Positions 11,556-61,386 of a DNA stretch of 64,000 nucleotides are shown piece by piece (within the stretch, counting starts at the first letter, position 1; each line of letters starts with the position of its first letter). Under the pieces are notes generated by a model. That model had not been told where the DNA came from. It made no database searches and worked only from the letters and a program-made list of their open reading frames with translations. This DNA is from Candidatus Binatia bacterium (lineage in GTDB: Bacteria; Desulfobacterota; Binatia; HRBIN30). Made by a program: the position numbers and the translations under genes. The stretch spans positions 186,001 to 250,000 of the forward strand of contig JAOAHD010000002.1 in the NCBI GenBank assembly GCA_026415395.1, written 5' to 3'.

Positions 11556-12029
11556 ATGAACCGACAAACTAAGCACCAGGTAGAAAGGGCAGCCGTAGCA
11601 GCGAAATTGCGCCGGATGGGTTTCGACGTGCAGGAGGTCCCGCGCAGCGGAAAGTACGACTTGCTGGTGGATGGGCACATCCGCGTAGCGTTGCGCGTGG
11701 CCTTCCCAGGTCGTTACGCTCATACCGTCACCGTCAATGGGCGGCGGTACGCGTACGACTATAAGAGTTGGAACTTCAACTTCCACCGGCACGGGCGTTG
11801 GGACCGGCGTTATTGCGACGTCTTTATCTGCATCGCCAAGCAGCGTCGCGCGGAGGACGAGGTTTTTGTGATCCCGGCAGAGGCTGTTTCCGGCCCAACG
11901 TTCAGCCTCCATGGCGCAAGCAAGCCGTATCGCGGCCGCTATGCCCAGTTCCGCAACCGCTGGAGCATTTTTTCCTCTTGGCCGCGGCAGCGCGAAGGGT
12001 CGGGCTCGCCGGTAGCCGAGGTAGCCTAA
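11556..12029 (+). CDS. Small PD-(D/E)XK-like protein, catalytic motif incomplete
   Basis: A 157-residue soluble protein. The N-terminal third reads VAAKLRRMGFDVQEVPRSGK followed by YDLLVDG and RVALRVA. The helix, then 'YDLLV-DG', then a hydrophobic strand arrangement is that of PD-(D/E)XK nuclease-fold proteins. Active members would have E-x-K in the last strand (for example VEVK); here it is ALR, so it is probably inactive or misassigned. The middle has SWNFNFHRHGRWDRRYCDVF and the end an aromatic segment FRNRWSIF, both reminiscent of small nuclease-fold families seen in many genomes. The ribosome binding site is weak, so the start is uncertain. It converges with the decayed defence operon, ending 105 bases from it. 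Confidence 0.6.
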   Translation: MNRQTKHQVERAAVAAKLRRMGFDVQEVPRSGKYDLLVDGHIRVALRVAFPGRYAHTVTVNGRRYAYDYKSWNFNFHRHGRWDRRYCDVFICIAKQRRAEDEVFVIPAEAVSGPTFSLHGASKPYRGRYAQFRNRWSIFSSWPRQREGSGSPVAEVA

Positions 12030-12134
12030 ACCTGGGCGGAGCGTCGCCAGCCGAACGGCGCGAACGGCGCTTGGGAAATGGGGCTCACTGAGCAGGTGAG
12101 CGGAGATCGAAGTGTGCGCGGTCAGCGTGGCGGC

Positions 12135-15100
12135 TCACGACGCCGCCATCGGTACCTGGGCTACAGCAAGCCGTACTGGCGCCGGACGCGCTGTCCCCTC
12201 ACTGAAGTACAATCCGTGGAAGCGTTCGAGCTGTTTGATCCGATCGACTAAGAGCCGTTCTTGATCCAGGGGGGCAACATTGCGTACCACCGCCTTGGCG
12301 TCGGGCTCGTTCAAGCGAAGGACAAGGTAGTTCGCCACCGTGGAAAATAGCGACGGGTGGAAGTCGCGTGCCTCCTGCCGGGCGAGCACGAGCGAAATCC
12401 CGAACTTGCGGCACTCCTTGGCCATGGTGGAGATGAGGCGCAAGCGTGCGGCTCGGTGAGCCTCGTCGAGAATGATTGCGTGAGTGATCCGGTCTCGCAG
12501 CCCCCGCCCCAAACATATCCTTGTACAGCCAGTAGAACACCAGCGAAGCGAACGCGCGTTGGAGGCGCTCGTTTTGCGTTCGGTGGATGCGCAACATGAG
12601 CGGGCTGTCGAACTCCCACAAACAGCGCGTGCTTCCGCGCGTGTGAAACAGGCCGTAGTCTGCCAGCTCTTGTAGCCTCATGACTAAACCACGCAGGCTA
12701 CGATCGGAAGAGTGCTGGTTCTGAAGGATCTCGAAGAAGCGCCGGAAGGACGGCGTTTGGAGAATTGCACGGTCCGCCGCCACATCTGCCCAGCCGCACT
12801 CAATGAAGCTTTGCTTGATCGCCTCGCGCAGGCGTTCCCCTTGCAGCTCGCGTAAATCGGGGAAAATCGCGAGGAAAATGTCGCGCATGATGCCAGCGAC
12901 GTCCAAGTAAGCAGTCGGGTTATCTCGCTGGGCGATTTCTAGGGGATTGAAGCTAAGTTCTTCGAAATCGAGAAAACGAACGCCCGGCACCAACGCCGCC
13001 AAGCGCTCGTTGATATCCTGGTGATAGGAGTACACCACCGGCCGCACACCGGCTAGTGACATCTGCGTACACAAGTTGACCAGGCTCGCCGTCTTGCCCA
13101 TCCCAGGCAGGCCTGCCACGAGAAGGTGGGGGTTGCCGCGAGCGCTGAGGGTCCAAACGACTGGGTCGCCTGTACGTGCGTGCGCTCCCAAGACGATTCG
13201 CACGACTTCGGGTGCCGGCACCACTCCATCGTGCTGCGGCTCGACCGCGTCACGGTCGGCACAGAAGAGAATTTCCGCATCCATGTCTGGCCCGCCATCG
13301 CGAGTGTGGTCCAGCATGCTCGCGGGCGAAAGCGCCGGGAGTTCTTGGCTGACTTCGGGTGGCTCTTCGGCGGCGGACACTTCGCCTCGGCCACGCCAAT
13401 CGGGCAGCAATGCCCCGCCGAAGAGAAGTACTGGAACCTCCGCCCGGCTGATCCCGGTGGGCTCTTTGACCTCGTATTCCGGGCAACAGATCATCACCCG
13501 GGCGCGAGCGGGAGCGAGCTTATAGTTGACTCCCCGCTCCATTAGCCGATCGAGTTCGGCGAGGATCGCTTGGTACGTTTCCCCTTCCAAGTGGTGCCGC
13601 AGTGCGCGGTCGGCATAAAAGCGCAACACGCGCACAAACCTCGCTCGCCGCAACGCGAGCAACGACGGAGGCACCTTGTCGCCCGCAATCCACTCGTTCC
13701 ATCGGTGGCGGAAGGTCTCCACCTCGTCTGCAAGTTCGTCGATAAACTCCGCCGCCCGTGCAGAGCGCAAATGCTGGCGGTATCCGACGCGGATCCATTC
13801 GAACGTGAGACCGCGCCGCGGTGCAGGAGCAACGTAAAGCAAGTCCGCGTGCGCACTCCGGGCGGATCCTGCTTCTCTCGGAGGAGCGATAAGCGGCAGC
13901 ACATCCGCGACATCAGCGAGCGGCACGAGGAAGCCCTGTTGCAACGACGGCCAGTCGGTTCCGCGACCGTTACTTGCCCGGCACTGCGGATAGGCGAGCG
14001 CCAGTGCGGCAATTTCCGGCGAGGGCGGGCGCTGCCCGGTGAGGCAAATGGCCAAGCGCCCACTGACGGCTTTGAGTTGATCGAGTAAGAATTCGGCGTT
14101 GCGCCGGCTTTGCACCAAGCCCATGTCCCCCAGGACCGTGTCGAGCAAGGCCCGCACTTCCTCGAAGTTGGAGGTCGACGTGACCAACTGCAGGCAGCCA
14201 AGGCCGTCGCGCTTCGGAACGCGGTCGATGATGTAGACTTCGTAAATTTTCGGATGCTCGCGCGGCGAGTCGAAATACTCGATCCCCGCATTCCGATCGA
14301 CGGTGATCACCCAATCACAAAGCCGATGCAGCTCCGCCAGTGCCTCGTTCGCCTCGGGCGAAATCTCGGTACGGAGCACAGGCAGCACATCATTGCCGGG
14401 CGATAAGTGGTTTGCCACACAACGCAACACCGCTTGCTGCAACCGCAGGAGCCGCTCGGTGTGTGTGCGATCGGCGGGATGCTTTTCCCCGTCGGAGCCG
14501 AGGCGGACGAAACTTCGCCATATGGGCAACGGTGTGCCCGAGTAAACGCGCTCCCAAGCGGACAGCAGCCCGTACGCCAACCAGGGGCGCCCGGGCGGTG
14601 CCGCGCGGGTGGGTTCGACAGTGACGCGCATCCTAAACGTGTCGAACGCTAGGGCGAAATGGGCGGGTGTGGAGGGACGATCTGCGTCGCGCTTTGCCCA
14701 CCGGAGGCGCGGCATCGCGACGCCGTGGGGAAGGGCAACCGACTCGATCAGCCACCGATCTTCTGGTGCCAGCGAACCTGCCCCTTTGCGTCGCTTCTCT
14801 TGCGCCTCGGCAAGGAACCTCCCCGCCGAGTGACGCTGCTCCGGCGACGAGTACAACTCCAACGCAAACGCCAAAGGTCGGCGCGGAGGCTGAGCCGCTT
14901 CTTCTTGCTCGTCTCCGGAAGCAGTTTCCGCTGCAACGACAGAACCCAGGGCCCGCGCTACGGTGAGGCCATCGCCGGCTCGCAAAGCGTGCAACTGCAG
15001 GATCCGCACGAACCCGGGTTCCCCGGAGCCCCCGCCCTCGTGGCACTGTAAGTATTTGTGGATTTCTTGCGCCAGCACCTGCGCACTCTGGCTGCCCACA

Positions 15101-17200
15101 GTGGGAGAAAAGTCCTCTCCATTGGCTCCACCGGCAGCCATGGCCATGGTGGCCACGGCTGCCTTGGGCTCGGTATCCGTGTCAGGCACCATGGCCACGG
15201 AATGAAATCCTAAAGTATCCGCGAACACAAAAGTGGATCCCGGTTGCAGCCCAGGGAGGAACGGCGGCACCAAGGCGCTATCGAGCAGGGAAAACTCTTC
15301 CCGGATCAGGGCGGGCCGCGCGTTTTCTTGAAAGCGGTTGTGCAACACCAAGTTGTCGTAGGCAACGTGCCAAGCGACACGCAGGCAGTGACTGGGCAGA
15401 ACCATGAGGCCGAGCGTCCGCCCCGCCAGCGATTGCACCTCGAGCGTATGGGCAAGGGCGAGCGCTGGCTCGCCACTGCGGAGGGCGGCATCCCAGGCGA
15501 GGAGGTATTCCCGCACGGTGTCGAAGCCAGGAACTTCCTGGTCGTAGACCTGGCCGACGCCGCCGCCGAACGCAGCAAAGCGTTCGGCCAGTTTGCGACT
15601 AGCGTTCGTCAGCCGCTCCCACGCTGCTCCGCTCACGTTGTCGGGGCGGTCGATCGCAAGAGCCTCCGGCCCGCTGGCTAGCCCGCCCGTGGCGCGCACA
15701 CGTGCCACCCAACGCCCGATGGCACCGCCTCGGTTGCACCAGTCCTCCTCCACCCGGCGGAAGAGCGGCAGACGGAACACGCGAAAGGCTTTGCCGCGCT
15801 CGGACGTGCGCAAAATGACGAATGACTTGCGATCCGTGACGAGCGGTTGGGCGGGCGTAATCCGCTGTAACGTCTCGATGACCGCTTCGCGGCTACCGAG
15901 CTCGATCAGGCCTTCGCTCAAGGTGCGCATCCGGCGAGCTCCGCTGGCGGCGTCGACCGCCTCGACATCGCCGACGCAGATGATGAACTCCTCGCTCTCG
16001 ACGGCTCCGACCTCCGGATGTCCGACCACGTACACTTCTGCCCGCGCGCTCACCACCGCGTCATCGTCGAGTTCTTGGAAGTCGTCGTTGTCGAAGCTGC
16101 AGCTCTGGTACTAACGCTTGCGATGCCGCACCACGCTTGTGGCCAATTCATCGCCCTGATCCGAGAGGATGGCCACACGATACTCGACCGCGCCGTCTTC
16201 GAGTTCTTGTGGCTTCGACTTCCAGCGGAATTCAAGCCTGGAATAGTCCCGTCGGTCCGTGGCTCGCGGGTCGATGATCAGCCGGGGTGGATCTTGCGGT
16301 CCGAGTCCTTCTCTCAGGCCCGACCACTTGACAATCCGTCCTGTGGCCGTGCGCCACGGAACCAGCTCGAGAGCGTAGACGGCCTGCTCGAAGTCGCGAA
16401 TGGGGAGCTCGTAAATCCACAGGTGCGGCTTATCGGCGAGGTGGCGCAAGGCCTCGAGCAAGGATCGCGTTTCTACCTCCCGCAAAAACTGCTCGAGGAG
16501 CGACCGCTGCTGCACACTCACATCGGCAAGCTTGACGGCGTCGATGCGCTGGTAAGCGGACAGTCCGGCTGTGTCCGCCAGCAGCCGCGCAACGAACATG
16601 CGGGAAATGTCGAGCGAACGGTTCCAGTCGTGGTGGCCGGATTTTCCTTCCGCCAAGGGCCAGAGCCCGAGCAGGTACAGAAGGGCCCCCGGCGTATGCT
16701 CCCCGGCCGCCACGCGCACGAGGAAGTCGAACTCGGTCCAGGGAGAAATCCGGACGAAGTGGCTGCGAAGGCGTGCTTTTTTCAGAGCTTGCTCTGCGCG
16801 CTCGCGCATTTCCCGCGAGTGCCGCAGGGTGATCGCACGTGCTGCTCGGCGTAAAGCCGAGCGGAAGAGGGTGGCTTCGTCCAGCTCCCGCGCGGCGCTG
16901 TAAATGCCGTCCATGCCGGCCCCGGCGCGTTGCGCATCGACGAGCAGTAACAACGGGTCGCCCTTGCCTTCGCGGACTTCCACGGCAAGGTCGGCAGTAA
17001 TCGTGCGCGTGGCGTCGTCCACGCTATCGGCCACGCGGCACACTTGCCAGCCCCGGGGTTGACAACGTGCATCGAGCGCGAGGTTCCACACCACTTCTGG
17101 CGGCAAGCAGCGCATGAAGGCAATCGCTCCCGGCTCCGGATAACCGACTACTTCCGCAACCGCCTCGGCAAACAGTTGGGGCGTGCAGCTCAGTCCACAT
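12135..17200 (-). pseudogene. Broken gene for a ~1,690-residue HerA/FtsK-type defence ATPase
   Basis: Third gene of the minus-strand operon. If three lesions are repaired it reads through as about 1,687 residues. The ATG at 17200 overlaps the stop of the preceding gene by 11 bases. Lesions: one extra base in a G-run at 17178-17181 (+ strand); an in-frame TAG at 16111-16113, after which the same frame continues 18 codons (FDNDDFQELDDD) before the next possible start; and one extra base in the C-run at 12507-12510. The C-terminal part is a P-loop ATPase: Walker A GLPGMGKTASL (about 13085-13115), Walker B HAIILDEAHRA (about 12455-12485), then SLVLARQEARDF, the sensor region of HerA/FtsK/VirB4-like motors. 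The long N-terminal part is not recognised. Size and layout resemble DptH of Dnd restriction and the large ATPase of the MADS system. The largest intact piece is 1,285 codons (12199-16056). Confidence 0.75.
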
Positions 17201-19011
17201 CCCAGCTTCCTCCCAGCGGAAAACGTGCCCGCAACTGCTTCATCGATTCCGCGTCGTTCACCGCCACGAGCAGGCCCAAATCGCGCAGCCGGCGCTCCAA
17301 TATCAGGCGGTTCTTGCGTAGCAATTGCATGGGCAGGTCGCTGCCGGGCGGCGAGGTGTCGACGAAAAAACCGTAGCGTTTGCCTAGGAGAGCGAGGAAG
17401 TCCTTGAGTGACAAGGCTCGATGGTGTCGCCCCCGCCCGGCGGGCAACAAATGCAAATGCACGAGGTAGTCGAGCACCGAGTCGGTAAAGACGAGCGAGC
17501 GCACCACTTGCTTGCGCACGCTCGCAGAGCCGTAAAGCTTGCGGGTCGTCTGCCGCTTGACCGCCAACCCATTGGGCCGGTCAATATGAGAGAGAATCGA
17601 CGGCCTTGTGGACCCCTTCCCGGGCGAGGCCTCGACTGAGTAACGACGCAATCATTTCGGCGAGCTTGATGAGGGGATTGCTTCCACCGTTCTCTTCGAA
17701 CACCCATGCGTTCGCAGGGAGGGATTCTTTCGGTTGTTCCGCGAGTTCGGAGCACTTGCGGGCAGCGTCGTAGTGCAATGCGGCGCTGTCGGGGTGCCGC
17801 TCATACAAGACGTCGCCCAGGAAATTCAACCACTCTTGTGCCGAGGGCGCCGTTGCGATTTGGACCTAGCGGAGCGTGGGATCGTGACGAACGCTGTAGT
17901 CCAACAAGCGTGCGAGGGTGAACACAAAGGGCAAGCGTTCGGCGGTGCGAAAGAAATCACTGAACGAGGCTTCAGCCGCGGCGCGCAGTTCACTGTCGAG
18001 GCCGGAAGAGCAATCGACAAACAGCGGCACGGGAGCCTGCGCCTCCCGCGCTGGTACCTTGCCTGTTGCTGCCCACTCGAGCATCGCCTGCACGACGCTG
18101 GCAAACACCGTGGTGAACCCTACGGCCATGCACGATTCCAGCAGCTCGACGAGAGCATGGCGGGGAACAGCTTCCGCGTAGGCGCGCAGGAATCGGCGCA
18201 AGTCTTCGGCGAAGTGTTTCGCCGCCACTTCGGCAATCGGCAGGCGGTTGGGAATTTCCGCGGCGCCGTCCACGCGGTTTTTGTCGGGTGCAGCACCCAA
18301 GGCTTGCGCCAAGCGGATCGTGAGAAATTGGTCCAGACCCACCGGCGTGCTTTCGTCGAAGCGGTCAGCAGCGCGGTCGCCGTACGGACCCTCGATGCGC
18401 ATGCCGGATCCGAATACGCGCAGCAGCAAGTTTTGCTCGAACCCGTGCCCCACGGCAAACCGAGTGCGCGCCTGATCAGGGGTCTGCTCGATGCGCTCGC
18501 CACGCGGCTGGTTTGCTAACAAGGCCACAGGGGTTTCGGGGACGGATCGAAGGTGGGCCACATGTTCGGGTAGGTCTACCCAACTCGCCATGTAATGAGT
18601 CGGTAGAACGCGTTGTACCTGTTCTTGCCGGCTTAAAGCGTGCAGGCGATTTTCGAGACAAAAGCCGAGGAGCAAGTCCGCCAAGATAGCGCGCTCCGTC
18701 TCGCCGTCGAAACCGCTGAACCACTCCAGCCGATCGCACAGCTTGGCTGCGATGCGCTCCGCCGTGGCTCCCTTCCGCCGCTCCCGCGGCGACGGGGATT
18801 CGGCGCCGAATACCTCGAGAAAACGTCCACGACCTCGGCGTTGTGCGAAGCGGAACGAGTAGAATACCGCGGGCAGGACGGCGGCGAGGTCGACATCGAA
18901 CACAGTGAGCGGCAAGGCCTTTTCGTAGTTCCCCGACCACAACTCGCGGGTCATGGGCTTGCCAAGGACATCTTCCAGCAACGCACGGGGGTTAGACAGG
19001 CTCAGCCTCAC
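17190..19011 (-). pseudogene. Broken gene for an unrecognised ~607-residue protein of the defence operon
   Basis: Middle gene. It starts at GTG 19011, overlapping the TGA of the kinase gene as GTGA, which argues for translational coupling. Two lesions: an in-frame TAG at 17866-17868, explainable as CAG to TAG, after which the same frame continues openly (VQIATAPSAQEWLNFLGDVLY); and a 2-base loss (or 1-base gain) in a GA dinucleotide run at 17588-17595. Repaired length is about 607 residues. I recognise no catalytic motif. The sequence is mainly helical, with acidic and Arg-rich segments; the C-terminal ~110 residues (VRSLVFTDSVLDYLVHLHLL to the end) look like a compact helical domain. Position between a kinase and a giant ATPase matches a 'core' subunit of such systems, possibly the counterpart of Mad7; that is inference from order and size only. 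Confidence 0.65.
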
Positions 19012-22000
19012 AGCGAAAGATTTTCGATGACGATTCGTTGGCGGGGGCCTTCCGCGCTGCCTTCGGTATGGGCTTGTACTCGATAAATCTCTGCCTCGTT
19101 CATCGGGTTCCACGCCAGCAGCTCCCGCTCGCCCTCTCGCACCAAGCGCTGCACAAAGATGGCGAGGCGGGTAAACGTGTCGTCGCTCGATACGTCGCCA
19201 AGCTGCAGTCCGTCGGCCAGCTCCAGCAGCAAATGGAAAAGCTCTGCGCCAATGGCGAGCCGTTCCTCGCCGCCGTTGCGATAGCGGTATACGAGGTCGA
19301 CTTGACGGTGGAGGCGACTGACGCCTGGGGTTTCAGCAGGCAAATCGACCGCGAGAGAAAATCACTCCAGGGGTTTCTCCACCCAGAAGGCTGTTTCCGT
19401 AGGCGTTCGCGTGGTTACTCGCAGCGGCACCACACCCGAGCGGCGGTACGCTTGCGGGGGAAGGTTTTCCAAGCGGGCGATGCCGCGACACAACCGCTCG
19501 CAAAGGCTGGCCTTCTCGCTTTCGGCAAGAAAGGGCAGTTGGGGAAACAGGTACAAGTGCTGCCCCCGCGCCAGCCCCAGCGCACGAGGGGAGCCGGCCA
19601 CGGCTTCGATGTCGGCCTCCAGCCATTCAAAAAAGGCCCGCCGCCGTGCCGACGCGAGAAGGAGCTCAGGGTACCGGGGCGGACCGGCGGGACCGGGATC
19701 CTCGGTCACGCTGCTCAGGTAACGGTCGAGTTTTGGGTGGGCTTCCAATGCCGGGTCGAAGCGGGCAAGCTCCGCGAGGACTTCGCCTTGGCGTGCTGGT
19801 GCGTCGGGGGCAAAGGGGCGGTCCCAGTAAGGCAACGCTTCGGTGCCGCGGTGGTAGTCGTCGCAAAAGTGAATGCCAAACAAGATGTAAACGAGCGCCG
19901 CGCGCAGCTCGCGGGTGGTCACATGCACTTCACCGCGGAAGTGGACGGCTTGTAACGCCTCCAACAGCCGGTCGCGGGCACGCTGGCGGAGCGCTTCCGG
20001 TGCTAGGGTTGGCAGGGTGTCCGGCCCGAACACTTGGTTTGCCCGCCGCGCTTCGCAACGCTGTTGCGCGATACAGCCTTCGCAGGGGGCCCAGATCTCA
20101 CCTGCACGGTCGCCTCCGTAAAGTGCTCGGACGCGTCGCTCGACAAAGCGAGTGCTGATCGTACTCGCTTCCGGGTAAAGCTCGCCCACTAAGGACCGGT
20201 CGTTCAGGTTGACGAAGCGGATGTAACCGTTGGCTTCGCCGCCTTCGCCTTGCACGAAGCGGTACAAAGTTTCGGTAAGGGTCGTGCTTTGCCCGCGATT
20301 CCGTTGCCGCAGAGCACCACAAGTCGGACCCGTTGCTCGGGAATGTCGCAAAGCAACACTTCTTCGAGCTCGGTCTCCACATACGTTCGGGCGGCAAAGT
20401 CGGAGTCCAGCCCACGCGTTTCACGGTTTCCCCAAAGCGAGCCGGGGTATGATTGCAGGAGCCAGTGGAGCCATTCGACCCGTTGGGGGCGAAGCGGCAC
20501 CGCTTGCCACGGTTGCGCGGTTGTGTCCTCCGGCGCGGGTTCGGCCTGCGCGTGCCGTCGCTCGCGCTCGTTTGCTTCGAGCCAAGCCATGGCCTCGGCC
20601 ACAGAGGCGAAGCGCTGCGTCGGATCCGGGTCGGTGGCCCGCGCCAAGAATTCAGCGAGCACCGGATACTCGTCCCGATCGATGCCGTCCCAATGGAGCC
20701 CGACCCGTTTTGACTCCAGGCTCCCGGCAGGAAACGGTTCGCGCTCGAAGACCACGTGGTACAGGGTGGCCGCTAAGGCATACAAATCATCGGAAGGCGA
20801 GGCCGTGTGGCCCTCGACGTACGAGGGCGAGGAGTAAAGGGGTGTGCCGGGATGTTCGATCCGATCGCCTATACGGGTGACGAAGTCGTAGTCGATTAAC
20901 ACCAGATCGCTGCCAGAGACGATCAGGTTACGCGGCGTGATGTCGCCGTGGATCAAACCGTTACGGTGCAGGACATCGAGGGCCGAGCACACACCGCGCA
21001 GCCAGCGGAGGGCGAGCGCTTCGGGGTTCGGCTCTTGCTCGTTTTCGGCGAGCAAAGGGAACACACCGATGAAATCGCTGAGGGGGGCTTCCTGGAACCC
21101 AAGACATGACGGCGAGGAATTCGTTTTCCCGCCACTCTCGAGCCACTTCGAAAATTGTCGAGAGCCCAGTGTGCCGGAGGTGAGAGCGGGCAAGCTCGTA
21201 TGCGCGCAACGCCCGGCGGCCGCTTTCGCCGTCGTACGCCACCTTGGCAACGTAGGTTGCCGCGCTCCTCGTGGGGGCTCTCGCCTACCTCCACCACTTT
21301 GAATGCAGCCCCGACACCGCCGGAGCCGAGGCGATTGATGATGCGGTACGTGCGGCCCGCAAACGGTACGAGTTGCCCTTCGGCCCAAAACCGCGCGGGC
21401 GGCGCCGGAGGTGAGGACACTTGGTCTCCTCCAAGTAGCGCGAGCTCACGCTCCACAGCGTCGATCGGGGCCCGTTGCTCTGGCTCCTCGGCCAAGCCTA
21501 GGGCAAGTATGGCGTGCGCCTGCGCGCTTTCAGCTTCGCTCCGACCAGCAAACAGCATTTGCAGCGAGGCACAAAGGGCGTACAAGTCGGAAGAAGTGGT
21601 CGCCGCCGTGAGCCCGCGCGCCAGCACCTCGGGGCAGTTGTGGTCGGGTCGAGTTGTTCAGGTTGGACGGCGGTTGCGATGGTTTCGTCTCCGGGAATGC
21701 GGGCAAGGTGCATGCCGGTCAGCAGCGGCGTGTTGTCATGGCGCACCAGAATGGTGTTCGGCGACAGGTTGCGATGCAGGGTCGGGGCGCCGCCATCCTT
21801 TGTCGCGTGCAGCTCGCGCAAGGCGGCGAGAGCGCGCACGGCAAAGGCGATGAGCTCTCGCACTGCCCAAGTGGTATCGGTGGACCGCTCGCGCAGACTC
21901 GGAGCGTCTGGATCGACAATCGTGAAAAAGAACATCTCTCCGTGATAACCCGGCACAGGCTGGAAGGAGTCGAGGATGCGGGGTGCCCAGCGATAGGTTT

Positions 22001-22738
22001 GCAAGCGGTGGAGGGCCTCGAATTCCCGACGGGCAAGGGTCTCGGCACGATCGTCATCATGTGCGGAGAGGTCGTACAGGTACAACATCACGCGGTCCCG
22101 CCGCGCAGGATGACGGGCGCGATAAATGCGCACGAAGCGGTCGTTACGCGGACTAATGAGGCGCAGGTCGACATAGCCTGCCAGGCGCGGGAGGACGTCG
22201 TCGATGGCCGTGCGCATGCGGGGCTCGAGCAGGCGAGCGAGGCGGGTCAGTTGTGCCTCGGACAAGCGTGCTGGCGCAGCGCAGCCTAACAGTACAGTTC
22301 AGACCACTGCGGGAGAGTAAAGAACGGCACGCCGAGAACGGGCCGGATCTTGTCGATGCGTCCTTTCGGCTGCTCGCGAGTCAGCAAAAATACCGGCTCT
22401 ACAAGTGGTAGCTCAGGAACGGTGCGCCGGAGCGTTGTCGCCAGCTTGCGTGCCTTGGCGTTGAGCTCCTGTGCTTCCGTTTCGATGTCGCGCGGGTTGT
22501 TTTCCATCCACGCGACTGACCAGTGCTTGATCTCCACCACGCGCACGCCGGGTGGACCGATGGCGACCAGGTCGATCTCCTCAGCCAATGCCTGATGATT
22601 CACGGAAAACGTGAGATTGCTCAGTAGGAACCAGCAACCGTTGCCGGCTTGCGACTGCAGGCGAGTCTTCAAGAATTCGAAGGCGCGGCTCTCGCTTGCG
22701 TTGGCAGCCGGGTCGCACGGAACTAAGGTCACCCGCAT
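19008..22738 (-). pseudogene. Broken gene for a NERD-pseudokinase-kinase-P-loop protein (PglW/Mad6-like)
   Basis: First gene of the operon, about 1,241 residues when six lesions are repaired. ATG 22738 has a GGAGG site seven bases upstream. Domains in order: NERD nuclease-related domain (22300-22738; EEIDLVAIGPPG then VRVVEIKHW, i.e. Asp and Glu-x-Lys present); kinase fold 1 with LHRNLSPNTILV in place of HRD and no DFG, a pseudokinase; kinase fold 2 with GSGGVGAAF loop, YVAKVAYDG, LIHGDITPRNLIV, VLIDYDF and GTPLYSSPSYV, probably active by design; a P-loop segment whose Walker A (GNGIAGKSTTL) is seen only after repairing an A-run; a Cys cluster (CEGCIAQQRCEA); and an alpha/beta C-terminus. Lesions: 5-bp duplication 22289-22298; run indels at 21631-21634, 21257-21258, 21082-21087 and 20288-20290; in-frame TGA 19362-19364 (Trp TGG to TGA fits). 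NERD-kinase fusion recalls PglW of Pgl/BREX type 2. Confidence 0.78.
22289..22298. repeat. 5-base tandem duplication breaking the NERD-kinase gene
   Basis: The + strand shows ACAGT twice in tandem. On the coding strand the second copy brings in a TAG at 22286-22288. Removing one copy joins the NERD reading (LPQWSEL) to LGCAAPARLSEAQLTRLARL and on into the kinase fold without any other change. Confidence 0.7.
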
Positions 22739-23230
22739 CTTACTTCCTCCGCATGCGCAGCTCGCAAAGCCGCATTGACCGATCGGGGCCACGCGTCGGG
22801 GGTGTTTCGGTATTCAGAACGCCGGCGTCGTCCCCTACCCAGTGCATTCGCTGCGTTCTCCCCAAAAATTCTCGCGGTTTGGAACGGCAAGCCTTTACCC
22901 CTGAGTTGTGCTGTTGGGCAAGACACCGTCGTGGACGGGCAGACACTAGCGCTGGTGAACGCCGGAAAGTTGCTTCGCCTGCGGTCGGGCGGCGTCCTCC
23001 GGAAGCGATCGGTAGCGATCCGCTCTTCTATTACGAGCGATTTTCTCCCAGCGTGGCTCCCTGGGCTGATTCGGCCGCTCCGGTGTTCGCCGCCCTGCGG
23101 TTTCCCGTGTGATTCTCTTTGTAGCTTGCCGCGTTTTTTTTGTTGACACCGGCATCCGCTGTGGCGTAAGTGGGGTTTCCGGGTGGTGGGGTAGTGGTAG
23201 GCGGAGCTAGCTAAGGAGGCGAAATTGATA
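22739..23230. other. Intergenic region between the defence operon and the surface-protein gene
   Basis: About 490 bases between divergent genes. Frames are open on both strands, but their translations have no recognisable domain and carry no ribosome site, so I see no gene. A T8 run occurs at 23134-23141 just before a TTGACA box. I could not find a convincing promoter for the minus-strand operon. Confidence 0.5.
23143..23171 (+). promoter_or_regulatory. Weak candidate promoter of the surface-protein gene
   Basis: TTGACA at 23143-23148 is a perfect -35 box, but the hexamer 17 bases on (GTAAGT) is a poor -10. It lies about 60 bases before an AAGGAGG ribosome site at 23213-23219. Confidence 0.3.
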
Positions 23231-25828
23231 ATGCTTGGGTGGCATTTCTTACGTGGCGTCCCCGCCGGGGCTCGCTTTAGCCAAGAGGGCGGAGGGGTGA
23301 GGAAGGATCCTCTCCTACCGCCGAGACGTCTAGGTCGCTGGATCAGTGGCAAACGTTTTCGGTCGCGCGCTTCGCTTACGAGCGCGGCGAGGGAAGGGTC
23401 GCAGAAGTTGGTAGCCCCGGGTAGTCATTGGCGCCACGATCGGGGGAAGTGGAGAACTCGCACTCTGCTGTGCTCGATCGCCGGAGCCGTGATGTTGTGC
23501 GGGGCGTGGAGGAGTTCGTTTGCCGGGGACTTGCCGCCGGCCTCTCCGAACATCGAAACGATTCCGGCCGGATCGCTCGTGATCCCCATGGATAACGACA
23601 AGCAGAACATGGGTGCACCATTCAATTTGAAAGCATATGGGTTGGTGCAGCGGCTGTTGAAGGCGCAGATCCCTGTGAAATGGGTGATCCGAACCGGCAA
23701 GGCAAAGGACGGGGTCGACTTTTCCGGGCAGGCGGAGCGGGTGCTGCCCAGTGCGCAGGCCGCAGGGCTCACGGAATTCCGTGGAGGCCCGTTTGTTGTT
23801 GAGACTGGCTTTGCCGCGGCGGCGCTCGATGTCGCAATGGGTTATGGAAACAACGTTGCCGTGTACCGGCTCACTCAAGCGGTCGAGGCGGACGTGAGAT
23901 ACACATTGCGCCAGCGCGCGTTTGTGTTTGTGGCCAACGACGACAATAACGCCTCGGTGCACACCGCAATTCTCTTGGCTGCTGGCTTTGTTGCCGGAGA
24001 GGATTATGCGGTGCTGGCCCGGCCCACGACGAGTGCGCAACTCAATGCGAATTTGTGCGCAACAATTGTGACCGAGCCTCATTATGACGGATCGGGCGAT
24101 CCGAACTGGGCCACGGTGGTTGCTGCGGTGCGCGACTTCCTTGCGTCCGGGGGAAACGTGCTTGCCCAGTGCAAAGCCATTGAAAGTTACGAGAACCACC
24201 CCACGTACGGTAGGTTTCAAACCACGAACGGCGTGGTAAAGCCTGGAAATTCTAAAACGGGGTTCAATTACCTCGTCCCGGATTTAGCCTTCAGTCAGTT
24301 TGTCGGTGACTTGCACGATCAAGGTGGGGCAACACCGCGTTATGCGCTGGCCCAGGGATCGAGCTTTCAAAACGGTGGGCACGCCCACATAGAGTACAGA
24401 GGTGCGGGGGCGGGTCGATTTAAGGCGAGCGTCAGCAAGCTCGGAAGCGAAGCTGGCTCGCTGGTTTTCTACTTAGCGGGACACGATTATTCGGGCTCGT
24501 CCATCGAGAGCATCAACGGGCGCCGGATGTACCTAAACGCTGTGTTTCACCCTGCGCGAAGACCGGCGAGTTGTGGCTTCGATTTCCCGAGCCCCACACC
24601 GACGAGCCCCACAGCCACCCCTGCAAGCCCTACCCCGACCTTCGCCGAGACGTTGACACCAATTCCGGTCGCCTCGCAAGTGACTCCGTTAACGGCCACT
24701 CCGAGCGTCTCAGCCACCGCAACCTCGGTACCTGCAACTCCCACATTTACAGCGCCGCCTCCGTCATTCACTGGCACGGCGACACCAACCGCGACCAGCG
24801 TCCCCCCCACGCGCACGTTCACTTTTACGCCCACGTCGACTCCGAACCCCTGTGGTAACGGAGACCTCGATCCGGGAGAGGAATGCGATGACGGAAACAA
24901 CGATAACGGAGACTGCTGCAATGCCACGTGCCAGCTCGATCCCGCTGGTACGCTATGCGAAGACGGCTTGGACTGCACCGAGGGAGACTACTGTGATGGC
25001 GTTGGTGTATGCCGCAGCGAGCCCTCGACGGGGCAATACGCCATCCTCCGATGGGTTCCCTCCGACGAAATAGGGAGTTTTGTGACCCTGCTGAGCCGGC
25101 GGGCACTGGTGGGCGGGCATGTTTGCACGGGTGCTGCTCACTTGGCAGGGAGTTCGCGCATTTTGGGAGATTTGGTCGGCCTACTCACCAGTGGCAATGC
25201 GTTGTCTTTCGGCAAGCGCACGCACGTTCTGGGGGCCGTTGTCACTCGAGGCGGAGCCGTGGTGGGCGCGCAAAATGCCGCGATCGGCGAGTTCTTGGGG
25301 GCGGACAGTTCCGATTCTACTGAGGAAGTCCGTGCGTGTGCAGAGGCGCGGACGAAGACCTTCGAGGCGCGGGAGCTGCTCGTCACGTTGCCCAATAACA
25401 GCGGGGCCATGTTCGGCGCCACGAAAGTGAAGGCGCGAAAAACGCTGCGGATCCCTGCCTCAGGGCAACTGGGTGGGGGAACGGTGGTGGCGGATTTCGA
25501 TGACCTTAAAATCGGGTCGACTGGCGCGGTGGAACTGGTTGGCAGCGCGTCTACCGAGGATGTCGTGATTCGTGTGCAGAACCAGTTGCGGATGGGTCGC
25601 CGAGCGAAATTCGTGTTGGACGGCCTTGAACCCAACCAGGTGGTGCTCGTTGTGAACGGAAGGACAACAATCGGCGACTCGGCCTACTTGCCGGGCACCT
25701 TGATTGGTGGCGACCGCATTATCGTGCGGCGACGGGCGCGGGTCGAGGGTGGGTTGTTTGGTAAGACGGTCTTGGTTTCCGGCTCTGCAAAAATTCGCCG
25801 AGCTGGTTGGGTAGGGTGGTGCCGGTAG
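23231..25828 (+). CDS. Mosaic secreted surface protein with Thr/Pro linker and Cys-rich DUF4215-type repeat
   Basis: An exported protein of 865 residues if started at ATG 23231 (an in-frame TTG at 23225 sits closer to the AAGGAGG site). A hydrophobic signal-like segment, TLLCSIAGAVMLCGAW, appears only at about residue 80, so the true start may be later. Domain 1 (about 100-445) is an alpha/beta domain beginning AGSLVIPMDNDKQN; I do not know its function. A ~90-residue Ser/Thr/Pro linker follows. Then a Cys-rich repeat, CGNGDLDPGEECDDGN (near 24850), of the Myxococcus-type DUF4215 family, and a C-terminal beta-rich domain (about 605-865) with Val/Gly/Ala repeats suggesting a beta-solenoid like polymer-forming surface proteins. 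No catalytic motif is recognised. It is probably displayed outside the cell. Confidence 0.75.
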   Translation: MLGWHFLRGVPAGARFSQEGGGVRKDPLLPPRRLGRWISGKRFRSRASLTSAAREGSQKLVAPGSHWRHDRGKWRTRTLLCSIAGAVMLCGAWRSSFAGDLPPASPNIETIPAGSLVIPMDNDKQNMGAPFNLKAYGLVQRLLKAQIPVKWVIRTGKAKDGVDFSGQAERVLPSAQAAGLTEFRGGPFVVETGFAAAALDVAMGYGNNVAVYRLTQAVEADVRYTLRQRAFVFVANDDNNASVHTAILLAAGFVAGEDYAVLARPTTSAQLNANLCATIVTEPHYDGSGDPNWATVVAAVRDFLASGGNVLAQCKAIESYENHPTYGRFQTTNGVVKPGNSKTGFNYLVPDLAFSQFVGDLHDQGGATPRYALAQGSSFQNGGHAHIEYRGAGAGRFKASVSKLGSEAGSLVFYLAGHDYSGSSIESINGRRMYLNAVFHPARRPASCGFDFPSPTPTSPTATPASPTPTFAETLTPIPVASQVTPLTATPSVSATATSVPATPTFTAPPPSFTGTATPTATSVPPTRTFTFTPTSTPNPCGNGDLDPGEECDDGNNDNGDCCNATCQLDPAGTLCEDGLDCTEGDYCDGVGVCRSEPSTGQYAILRWVPSDEIGSFVTLLSRRALVGGHVCTGAAHLAGSSRILGDLVGLLTSGNALSFGKRTHVLGAVVTRGGAVVGAQNAAIGEFLGADSSDSTEEVRACAEARTKTFEARELLVTLPNNSGAMFGATKVKARKTLRIPASGQLGGGTVVADFDDLKIGSTGAVELVGSASTEDVVIRVQNQLRMGRRAKFVLDGLEPNQVVLVVNGRTTIGDSAYLPGTLIGGDRIIVRRRARVEGGLFGKTVLVSGSAKIRRAGWVGWCR

Positions 25829-29351: not shown

Positions 29352-29352
29352 G

Positions 29353-60263: not shown

Positions 60264-60303
60264 GCTTGGTCGTGGATTTGACTGTAGGGGAGGAAAATCG
60301 CAC

Positions 60304-60603
60304 ATGGCAACCACAATCCGCTTAGCCCGGCACGGATCGAAGAAACGCCCTTTTTACCGCATCGTTGTGGCGGATTCGCGCGCGCCGCGCGACGGGCGCC
60401 GGTTAGACCAAATCGGGTACTACGATCCGACCCGCAACCCGGCGGTTGTACACATTGACGAGGCGAAGCTGAACACGTGGTTGCAGCGCGGAGCACAGGT
60501 GAGCTTGACGGTATCGCAGTTGATTCATCGGGTTCGCCGGTCGCAAGGCGCGGCGAGCGAAGCGATCGGGTCGGCACCACAAGCTGGGGAGGCAGAAGCA
60601 TGA
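60304..60603 (+). CDS. rpsP: 30S ribosomal protein S16
   Basis: A 99-residue ribosomal protein recognised from [32 protein letters not shown] and [11 protein letters not shown]. The ATG is preceded by GGGGAGG. It ends TGA overlapping the khpA ATG. The C-terminal 20 residues are an Ala/Glu-rich extension after the conserved core. Confidence 0.98.
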
Positions 60604-60836
60604 AGGAACTGGTTCAGGTTTTGGCGAAGCACTTGGTCACGAAGCCGGACGCCGTCGAGGTGCGGGAAACGCAGGGGGAGACCGCTTCCGTGGTGGAGCT
60701 GAAGGTGGCGCGGGAGGACCTGGGGCGGATTATCGGCAAGCAGGGGCGGATGGCGAAGTCGATTCGCACCATCCTCAACGCCGCGGCGTCGCGTGCCAAT
60801 CGCAAAGTCATTCTCGAAATCATCGAAGAAAAGTAA
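60600..60836 (+). CDS. khpA: KH-domain RNA-binding protein KhpA
   Basis: A 78-residue KH protein (YlqC family). The start [19 protein letters not shown] and the GxxG loop motif [17 protein letters not shown] are typical. It binds structured RNA, usually as partner of KhpB, in translation-linked control. The ATG shares bases with the S16 stop (ATGA) and has GGGGAGG upstream. Confidence 0.96.
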
Positions 60837-60888
60837 GAAAACTTCGATTGCACGTGGGCGCACGCCCGTAGGCGAACGAGCCGGGTGG

Positions 60889-61386
60889 GTGCGCATCGGC
60901 AAAATTGTCGGGTTGCATGCTTTAGCAGGGGAAGTGCGCCTGCTGCCGGATAATCCAGACGCGGCGGTACTCCCACCTGGAACCAACGTCGAATTGCGGC
61001 GCCCTGGCGAGGTGCGCTCGGCCGAGGTGCGCGGCGCCCGACGCCATCAGCGCCTGCTGTTGCTGCAGTTTGCTGGCGTGGAGGATCGCTCGACGGCCGA
61101 GCAGTATCGCGACTTCGAAGTTTGGATCCGTACCGAGCAACTGCCGCTGGCCGGTGCCAACGAGTACTACTACTTCGAACTCGAAGGCATGGAGGTATAC
61201 ACCACGGCCGGTGCATGGCTTGGAGTCGTGACCTCGGTGATGCCCACTGCAGCCGCCGATGTGCTGGTGATTCAGGGCAAGGAAAAGGAGTACCTCGTGC
61301 CGATGGTGGGGCAGTTCGTGAAGTCCATCGACCGGACGACTCGCCGTGTGTGCATTGATCCCATCCCTGGGTTACTGGAACCCTGA
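60889..61386 (+). CDS. rimM: Ribosome maturation factor RimM
   Basis: A protein of about 165 residues starting [20 protein letters not shown], then the PRC-barrel part ([39 protein letters not shown]). RimM binds S19 and aids 30S maturation; its location between khpA and trmD is canonical. I prefer the GTG at 60889 because it fits the usual N-terminus and length; an earlier GTG at 60793 would add 32 residues read out of frame from the khpA end. The stop overlaps trmD by one base. Confidence 0.93.

What the first reader, a model, noticed from the sequence alone, without database searches (positions are those of the whole stretch)
12135..22738. Decayed three-gene kinase/ATPase defence-like operon
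Three minus-strand genes are coupled by GTGA and 11-base overlaps, and become continuous reading frames of about 1,241, 607 and 1,687 residues only after repairing about eleven lesions: one tandem duplication, several 1-2 base indels in runs, and three in-frame stops. Flanking and distant genes in the window show no such lesions. The simplest reading is a large phage-defence operon losing function while its neighbours stay under selection. Gene order and sizes recall kinase-middle protein-giant ATPase modules such as mad6-mad7-mad8 of MADS.
Basis: partly seen in the sequence, partly recalled or inferred. Interest (0 to 1): 0.85.

Follow-up and report, generated by a model that had tools for sequence, protein, structure and literature searches.

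The report
Broken kinase-fused DndFGH defence operon
A three-gene anti-phage restriction machine of a recently recognised kind was picked up by this uncultured bacterium at a site that is empty in two close relatives, appears to have lost its main DNA-cutting site first, and has since been wrecked by about eleven mutations.

Summary
On the minus strand, 22738 to 12135, three coupled genes match intact three-gene operons elsewhere. Frameshift-aware alignment to five, six and seven relatives (genes 1, 2, 3) gives the same breaks: seven small frameshifts, three nonsense codons and one ~90-codon deletion. Neighbouring genes, compared with two genus mates, show no in-gene lesion on which both mates agree. 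Both mates keep the flanks with about 1.1 kb in place of 11.5 kb, so the operon is a ~10.4 kb insertion.

The intact form is NERD nuclease + pseudokinase + kinase + DndF-like P-loop, a MAD7/SspG-like protein, and a DndH-like giant (nuclease + HerA/FtsK ATPase). This matches a published class, standalone DndFGH with NERD-kinase-fused DndF (PMC10853773). It is homologous to mad6 and mad7, but intact relatives fall far below NCBI's MADS cut-offs.

New here: the D-E-K site of the DndH nuclease is kept in 16 of 16 intact relatives, but the window has D-R-G, and that domain evolved unusually fast (one scan was not significant). Best reading: nuclease disarmed first, frames broken recently. Raw reads were not available.

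The parts
19008..22738 (-). Gene 1, broken: NERD nuclease + pseudokinase + Ser/Thr kinase + DndF-like P-loop region; 1,319-1,348 aa in L009, L010, L011
   Evidence: NERD E=4e-9, Pkinase E=5e-14; MAD6 profile on four pieces; frameshift-aware alignment to L011, L009, L010, G027, G407
22289..22738 (-). NERD domain piece, frame open up to the first frameshift; the E-I-D and E-x-K residues of the family are kept
20500..21400 (-). Active-type kinase region (Lys, HGD, Asn and DYD kept), interrupted by frameshifts at about 21255 and 21085
20285..20310 (-). Site of a deletion of about 90 codons, starting at or within the Walker A motif of the DndF-like part and removing the conserved ND segment; also frame-changing
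   Evidence: 5 of 5 relatives with gene 1 show 91-94 missing residues; motifs
19362..19364 (-). Nonsense codon in gene 1
   Evidence: 5 of 5 relatives
17190..19011 (-). Gene 2, broken: MAD7/SspG-like (DndG position); stop at 17866 and frameshift near 17590
   Evidence: MAD7 profile E=1.5e-15 and 1e-10 on two pieces; 6 of 6 relatives
12135..17200 (-). Gene 3, broken: DndH-like giant with REase region and HerA/FtsK ATPase; frameshift about 17176, stop 16111, frameshift about 12507
   Evidence: DndH and mad8 profiles E=2e-9 and 8e-9; 7 relatives
13783..13791 (-). Place of the E-x-K of the DndH nuclease site: reads R-V-G here, E-[VI]-K in 16 of 16 intact relatives
13087..13114 (-). Walker A region of the HerA/FtsK ATPase, conserved; Walker B lies beyond the 12507 frameshift
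12026..23527 (.). Interval that replaces about 1.1 kb in both genus mates; net insertion about 10.4 kb

Best explanation
The locus is the wreck of a horizontally acquired, standalone DndFGH-type restriction module whose DndF carries an N-terminal NERD nuclease and a pseudokinase-kinase pair. When intact, such a complex is expected to recognise invading DNA with its G and H subunits, translocate on it with the HerA/FtsK motor of H, cut or nick it with the PD-(D/E)xK domain of H, and use the DndF P-loop and the kinase/NERD domains as a sensing switch or backup effector (mechanism inferred from published DndFGH/SspFGH work, not shown here). In this lineage the module entered between two conserved genes, with no modification partner found nearby. 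The nuclease site of H was then lost by substitution (E to R, K to G) while the rest of the protein was still largely conserved. Recently all three frames collapsed (seven small frameshifts, three stops, one ~90-codon deletion in the DndF P-loop), so it should make no working complex today. Shown: homology, gene breaks, empty site in two genus mates, loss of the nuclease site. Inferred: order of events, toxicity as the reason, function of the intact form.
For: Same breaks against 5, 6 and 7 relatives for genes 1, 2 and 3. Uninterrupted three-gene operons in L009, L010, L011, G027, G407 and in the distant L086, L087, L089, L090, L091, L092, L093. Empty site in 2 of 2 genus mates with collinear flanks; gene 3 found in 1 of 7 family genomes, the window's own. 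No in-gene flank lesion on which both mates agree. Family hits MAD6/MAD7, DndH/mad8, and SspF, DndH, DptF on intact L011 (below the NCBIfam cut-offs); DptH structure 7es4 E=1.2e-8 for the ATPase part. Nuclease triad D-E-K in 16 of 16 intact H proteins, D-R-G in the window. REase piece branch 3.5 times the mean of G407 and G027, against 1.5-2.6 for seven of the other eight pieces (the eighth, 961-1090, is 10 times on very short reference branches); relative-rate ratio 1.9 (95% CI 1.3-3.1) against L011 and 1.7 (1.3-2.2) against L009. No DndC match in the held assembly. Published: DndF with NERD and inactive + active kinase, DndFGH standalone (PMC10853773); unpartnered SspFGH and DndFGH damage the host's own DNA (PMC8092258, PMC12707154, passages).
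Against: No reads, so assembly error is not excluded; four of the seven small frameshifts lie at or beside C or G runs of 4-6 (about 21640, 21084, 17176, 12507), as long-read errors would, although the 52.8 kb of flanks hold 368 such runs of 4 or more (71 of 5 or more). A scan for the least conserved stretch of gene 3 was not significant by permutation (419 of 2000 reach it); the REase Fisher test (p 0.002) chose its region after the fact; stretch 961-1090 next to it is also fast. The tree of H proteins gives the window a long branch overall (0.86 against 0.18-0.39 for G512, G407, G027) and flags unusual composition, so part of the speed is not REase-specific. Invariant-column retention in gene 1 (308 of 335) is as good as in relatives, so relaxation before the breaks is not seen there. 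The order 'nuclease first' rests on one lineage. G (triple wHTH) and REase folds could not be checked: both structure predictions failed (pLDDT 39 and 37).
Confidence: 0.85

Rival explanations
1. The breaks are assembly or sequencing errors in an insert carried by few cells of the population, so the real operon is intact.
For: Genome is a draft in 25 contigs; four of seven small frameshifts lie at or beside C/G runs; the insert is absent from both genus mates, so it could be less deeply covered.
Against: Three nonsense substitutions, a deletion of about 90 codons and the two catalytic substitutions are not run-length errors; only 0-5 arguable events in 15,067 flank codons.
Confidence: 0.1
2. 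It is a MADS system that has lost mad1-mad5.
For: MAD6, MAD7 and mad8 profiles hit the three genes. A gene beside the triad in L012 hits the PADLOC mad2 profile (E=3e-17).
Against: Intact relatives are far below the MAD6/MAD7 equivalog cut-offs and gene 1 carries a DndF-like C-terminal half (L011: SspF 50.7 bits, DptF 21.7 bits). The L012 gene is RsmD, an rRNA methyltransferase, above its NCBIfam cut-off. The neighbours scanned in G407 (7 ORFs) and L011 and L012 (2 each) are ordinary genes, not MADS genes.
Confidence: 0.05
3. The pieces are real separate genes or are rejoined by programmed frameshifting.
For: Several pieces are long open frames, one of 1,285 codons.
Against: No aligned relative has a gene boundary at a break; three stops and a large deletion cannot be rejoined; slips in different directions would be needed.
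Confidence: 0.02

Closest known systems
DndFGH with NERD-kinase-fused DndF (Rakesh, Aravind and Krishnan 2024, PMC10853773)
   Same: Three-gene F-G-H order, NERD + inactive + active kinase before the DndF core, giant H with REase and HerA/FtsK, standalone occurrence
   Different: Here broken in 10-11 places, DndF P-loop deleted, H nuclease site lost; G and H supported only partly, by sequence
MADS mad6-mad7-mad8
   Same: Homologous kinase and MAD7; C-terminal ATPase of gene 3 matches PADLOC mad8
   Different: Below MAD6/MAD7 cut-offs; gene 1 has a DndF-like half; no methyltransferase among the window ORFs scanned
SspFGH (PMC8092258)
   Same: Weak SspF and SspG matches; published toxicity without its modification partner
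   Different: Low similarity; no NERD-kinase part of SspF in the passages read
BREX type 2 PglW (PMC12839542)
   Same: Same NERD-pseudokinase-kinase order
   Different: PglW has a different C-terminal half; window pieces and intact L011 and L009 score 17-51 bits against a cut-off of 990

Membership tests
DndFGH, kinase-fused form | Three coupled genes F-G-H in order | tested here: met
   Window overlaps; intact operons in relatives
DndFGH, kinase-fused form | DndF core: P-loop with Walker A and ND motif | tested here: not met
   Present in intact relatives (GNAGDGKT ... NDGRL; L011 SspF 50.7 bits; DptF 21.7 against a cut-off of 50); deleted in the window. Membership is therefore claimed for the ancestor of this locus, not for a working system
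DndFGH, kinase-fused form | NERD + inactive + active kinase before the DndF core | tested here: met
   Pfam NERD and Pkinase in window pieces and in G407 (L085), L086, L087, L089, L090; the first kinase copy lacks the catalytic Asp and DFG-type residues in the alignment (motif meaning recalled)
DndFGH, kinase-fused form | DndG triple winged helix | tested here: inconclusive
   Weak SspG hits at the C-terminus; AF2 model too poor
DndFGH, kinase-fused form | DndH C-terminal HerA/FtsK ATPase | tested here: met
   DndH profile 33 bits window, 74 bits L011; 7es4 DptH E=1.2e-8
DndFGH, kinase-fused form | DndH active REase (D...E-x-K) | tested here: not met
   Kept in 16 of 16 intact proteins including one canonical DptH; D-R-G in the window. 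That this pattern is the catalytic site is inferred from position and conservation
DndFGH, kinase-fused form | DndH N-terminal SWI2/SNF2, TRD and inactive DAM domains | not tested
   No structure job was run on that part
MADS | MAD6 and MAD7 above NCBI equivalog cut-offs | tested here: not met
   Window pieces at most 57 bits; L011 170 of 460 and 154 of 410; L009 154 and 95
MADS | Neighbouring mad1-5 genes including a methyltransferase (gene list recalled) | tested here: not met
   None among 20 window ORFs scanned with Pfam; not all window genes were scanned
BREX type 2 | PglW above cut-off with pglX, pglY, pglZ | tested here: not met
   PglW 16.7 and 26.2 bits against 990; no pgl-type genes among the 20 ORFs scanned

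The most novel reading that the evidence does not exclude
The DndH of this lineage worked for a long time as a nuclease-dead protein: its cutting site was abandoned while the kinase, NERD domain and DNA motor were still kept, implying that kinase-fused DndFGH can defend by a nuclease-independent route (phosphorylation, NERD cutting, or blocking DNA movement), before the whole operon recently collapsed.
Probability: 0.25. Interest if true: 0.55.

Novelty: new member of a known kind. Interest (0 to 1): 0.4.

Why it matters
It gives a mapped case of a very large defence module being gained at a defined site and then lost, with the most dangerous activity apparently removed first. The intact relatives found here, several with no modification gene among the neighbours scanned, make a concrete test possible of how a restriction machine avoids cutting its own chromosome, and of whether the fused kinase and NERD domains are switch, backup effector or the main weapon.

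Tried and rejected
MADS membership, BREX/PglW membership, split genes and programmed frameshifting were tested and rejected (see rivals). A search for a second copy of gene 3 in the genome found only the window. A viral-contig scan found no relative and the phage collection one weak ATPase-region match. Plasmid search with the intact gene 3: 15 records, 2 of them over 80% of its length. Searching the own genome for a relative of one of the two Rhizobium anhuiense methyltransferases found nothing (the tool warns that without a positive control an empty answer shows nothing); the other one was not tried. AlphaFold jobs on the REase region and on gene 2 gave pLDDT 39 and 37 and were not used. Profile searches of the PDB with gene 2 and with the REase region gave nothing useful. 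A permutation scan for the worst conserved stretch of gene 3 was not significant. Paper searches for MADS found no primary paper in the held library, so statements on the MADS gene list are recalled. A search of the insert ends for repeats found nothing convincing.
Full report
WHAT WAS CHECKED. The window lies in a 3.69 Mb draft genome in 25 contigs, at G000:C2:186001-250000. On the minus strand between 22738 and 12135 there are many overlapping open pieces. Ten of them were scanned; their family hits run in order: NERD and MAD6 N-terminus, MAD6 middle, MAD6 again, protein kinase, two pieces without a clear hit, MAD7, MAD7, one piece without a clear hit, then a DndH/mad8-type ATPase.

INTACT RELATIVES. 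tblastn with the longest piece found two Rhizobium plasmids over most of its length and one partial match, and a scan of GTDB contigs found a Hydrogenedentota MAG (L011) and a Desulfobacteraceae MAG (L012). L009, L010 and L011 carry three adjacent open genes of 1,319/604/1,647, 1,330/607/1,646 and 1,348/601/1,685 aa; L012 has 598/1,686 aa with the contig start just upstream. A search of 395 genomes of the window's phylum with the middle protein gave 6 with a match, the window's own included; among them G027 has the full open operon. A search of 148 genomes of the class with gene 3 gave 20 with a match at E <= 0.001: the window's own, two full-family members (G407, complete operon; G512, partial on a 4.1 kb contig), two distant relatives matched in the middle (G416, G487), and 15 matched only in the ATPase part. 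More distant open triads are in G416, G487, G397, G302, G042 and on Piscinibacter and Bacteroides plasmids (kinase domains were checked by Pfam in the first four). So none of the 12 complete operons looked at (5 close, 7 distant) is broken; the window's is.

LESIONS. A frameshift-aware protein-to-DNA alignment was written and run with each relative. For gene 1 (five relatives) all show small frameshifts near 22290, 21650, 21255 and 21085, a gap of 91-94 residues at about 20300 with a frame change, and a stop at 19362. For gene 2 (six relatives) all show a stop at 17866 and a frameshift within 17586-17610. For gene 3 (seven relatives) all show the stop at 16111 and the frameshift at about 12507; the frameshift at about 17176 is seen with L011, L012, G027 and G407, not with L009, and could not be seen with L010 and G512, whose proteins start later. 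Events not counted, because one relative alone gave them: a stop at 21658 with L011 (another placement of the 21650 break), a frameshift at 17219 with L009, two frameshifts at 13219-13272 with G512 and gaps of 12 and 20 residues near 13230 with L010 (a poorly conserved stretch), and end effects with L011 and G027. The deletion starts at or in the Walker A motif of the DndF-like part and removes the conserved ND segment. Three stops at an opportunity of 0.033 stop-making changes per random substitution suggest roughly 90 unselected substitutions in 10.5 kb, about 0.9% (my arithmetic; the Poisson range is wide, about 0.2-2.6%), so the collapse of the frames looks recent.

FLANKS AND SITE. Two genus mates hold the same genes in the same order on both sides (aligned DNA about 66-79% identical), but where the window has 11.5 kb between aligned positions 12025 and 23527 (23546 with G002) they have about 1.1 kb. 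Net insertion is about 10.4 kb, close to the 10.6 kb operon. No tRNA or convincing flanking repeat was seen, and no integrase among the ORFs scanned. Gene 3 is in 1 of 7 family genomes, the window's own. For the control, ORFs of the two mates were aligned in the same way to the window: 16 ORFs and 7,783 codons for G001 gave 4 raw frameshifts and 0 stops; 33 ORFs and 15,067 codons for G002 gave 9 and 10. By comparison, most lie before the window's start codon, after its stop, or in an antisense frame (two doubtful places were looked at again). One raw event, at 29352, appears with both mates; it lies one base before the start codon of the ftsK gene. Those inside a listed ORF (10669 and 33843 with G001; 9942, 9980, 35111 and 40717 with G002) are not seen with the other mate; 33843 has no counterpart in the G002 list. 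This sorting was by hand.

WHAT IT WAS. The intact L011 and L009 proteins reach no NCBIfam cut-off: L011 gene 1 scores 170 of 460 bits for MAD6 and 21.7 of 50 for DptF, gene 2 154 of 410 for MAD7. PADLOC gives L011 SspF 50.7 bits, DndH 73.7 and mad8 69.9, and the best PDB match of the gene 3 profile is the DptH ATPase structure 7es4, E=1.2e-8. The layout is the one described by Rakesh, Aravind and Krishnan (PMC10853773; I read the abstract, passages, and sections 12, 19, 21, 22 and 25): DndFGH as a standalone counter-invader system, some DndF proteins with NERD and tandem inactive and active S/T/Y kinase domains, DndH with REase and HerA/FtsK. PMC12839542 (passages only) notes the same order in PglW. 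I therefore file the ancestor of this locus as kinase-fused DndFGH, and not as MADS or BREX.

THE NUCLEASE SITE. In gene 3 a D...E-x-K pattern sits where the REase is expected. Aligned with 16 intact H proteins (seven of the close family, eight distant triad-type ones, one canonical DptH), all 16 have D, E and K; the window has D, R and G. By the genetic code any Glu codon needs three base changes to become the window's CGC, and any Lys codon two or three to become GGA (window codons): too many for a locus with about 1% free divergence. By iqtree branch lengths on nine pieces, the window's REase piece (193 residues) has a branch of 1.78, 3.5 times the mean of G407 and G027; seven others are 1.5-2.6 times, and 961-1090 just before it 10 times, on very short reference branches. 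On columns identical in G407 and G027 the window differs at 48% in the REase piece and 27% elsewhere, while L011 differs at 20% and 21% and L009 at 44% and 42%. Against this, a permutation scan over invariant columns was not significant (419 of 2000), and the window's whole H protein has a long branch with unusual composition. Residues of the NERD site, the active kinase and the HerA Walker A are still those of the family, and of the columns invariant in intact relatives the window keeps 308 of 335 in gene 1, 146 of 170 in gene 2 and 371 of 432 in gene 3 (relatives left out one at a time keep 86-88%, 87-97% and 87-95%). The simplest order is loss of the H nuclease under continued constraint on the rest, then collapse.

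WHY IT MIGHT HAVE HAPPENED. SspFGH without its modification genes damages host DNA and impairs growth, and the same is reported for DndFGH (PMC8092258 and PMC12707154, passages). The window genome has no DndC match (assembly 96% complete) and no methyltransferase among the 20 ORFs scanned. An unpartnered, costly nuclease would be under pressure to be switched off. This step is inference: four of the intact loci also show no modification gene among the few neighbours scanned (G407 7 ORFs and G027 3; L011 and L012 2 each), so the class may have another way to spare its host.

LIMITS. Other papers were seen as listings or abstracts only (PMC3488263 abstract and outline; PMC11662687 listing).

Noticed in passing
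L093 8634-11805 (Bacteroides finegoldii plasmid): A distant kinase-G-H triad is followed directly by a PP2C phosphatase, a Fic protein and RhuM, which suggests kinase/phosphatase control of the module.
   Followed up: no
L010 19255-22250 (Rhizobium anhuiense plasmid): The intact triad is followed by two DNA methyltransferases; the R. phaseoli copy (L009) has a type ISP enzyme and a methyltransferase further on. A possible self-protection partner in rhizobia.
   Followed up: partly
window 60264-61386: Stretch after the SRP54 gene aligns without gaps over about 1.3 kb to genus mate G002 with several frames conserved; not annotated here, possibly small ribosomal-type genes (a guess).
   Followed up: no
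L022 5928-7811 (G027): Next to the intact operon of G027 lies a NERD-UvrD helicase gene, another likely defence gene.
   Followed up: no
window 23225-25828: Large gene with a weak ice-binding-like match just beyond the insert (below Pfam's cut-off); by eye its promoter region marks the right edge of the empty site in the genus mates.
   Followed up: no
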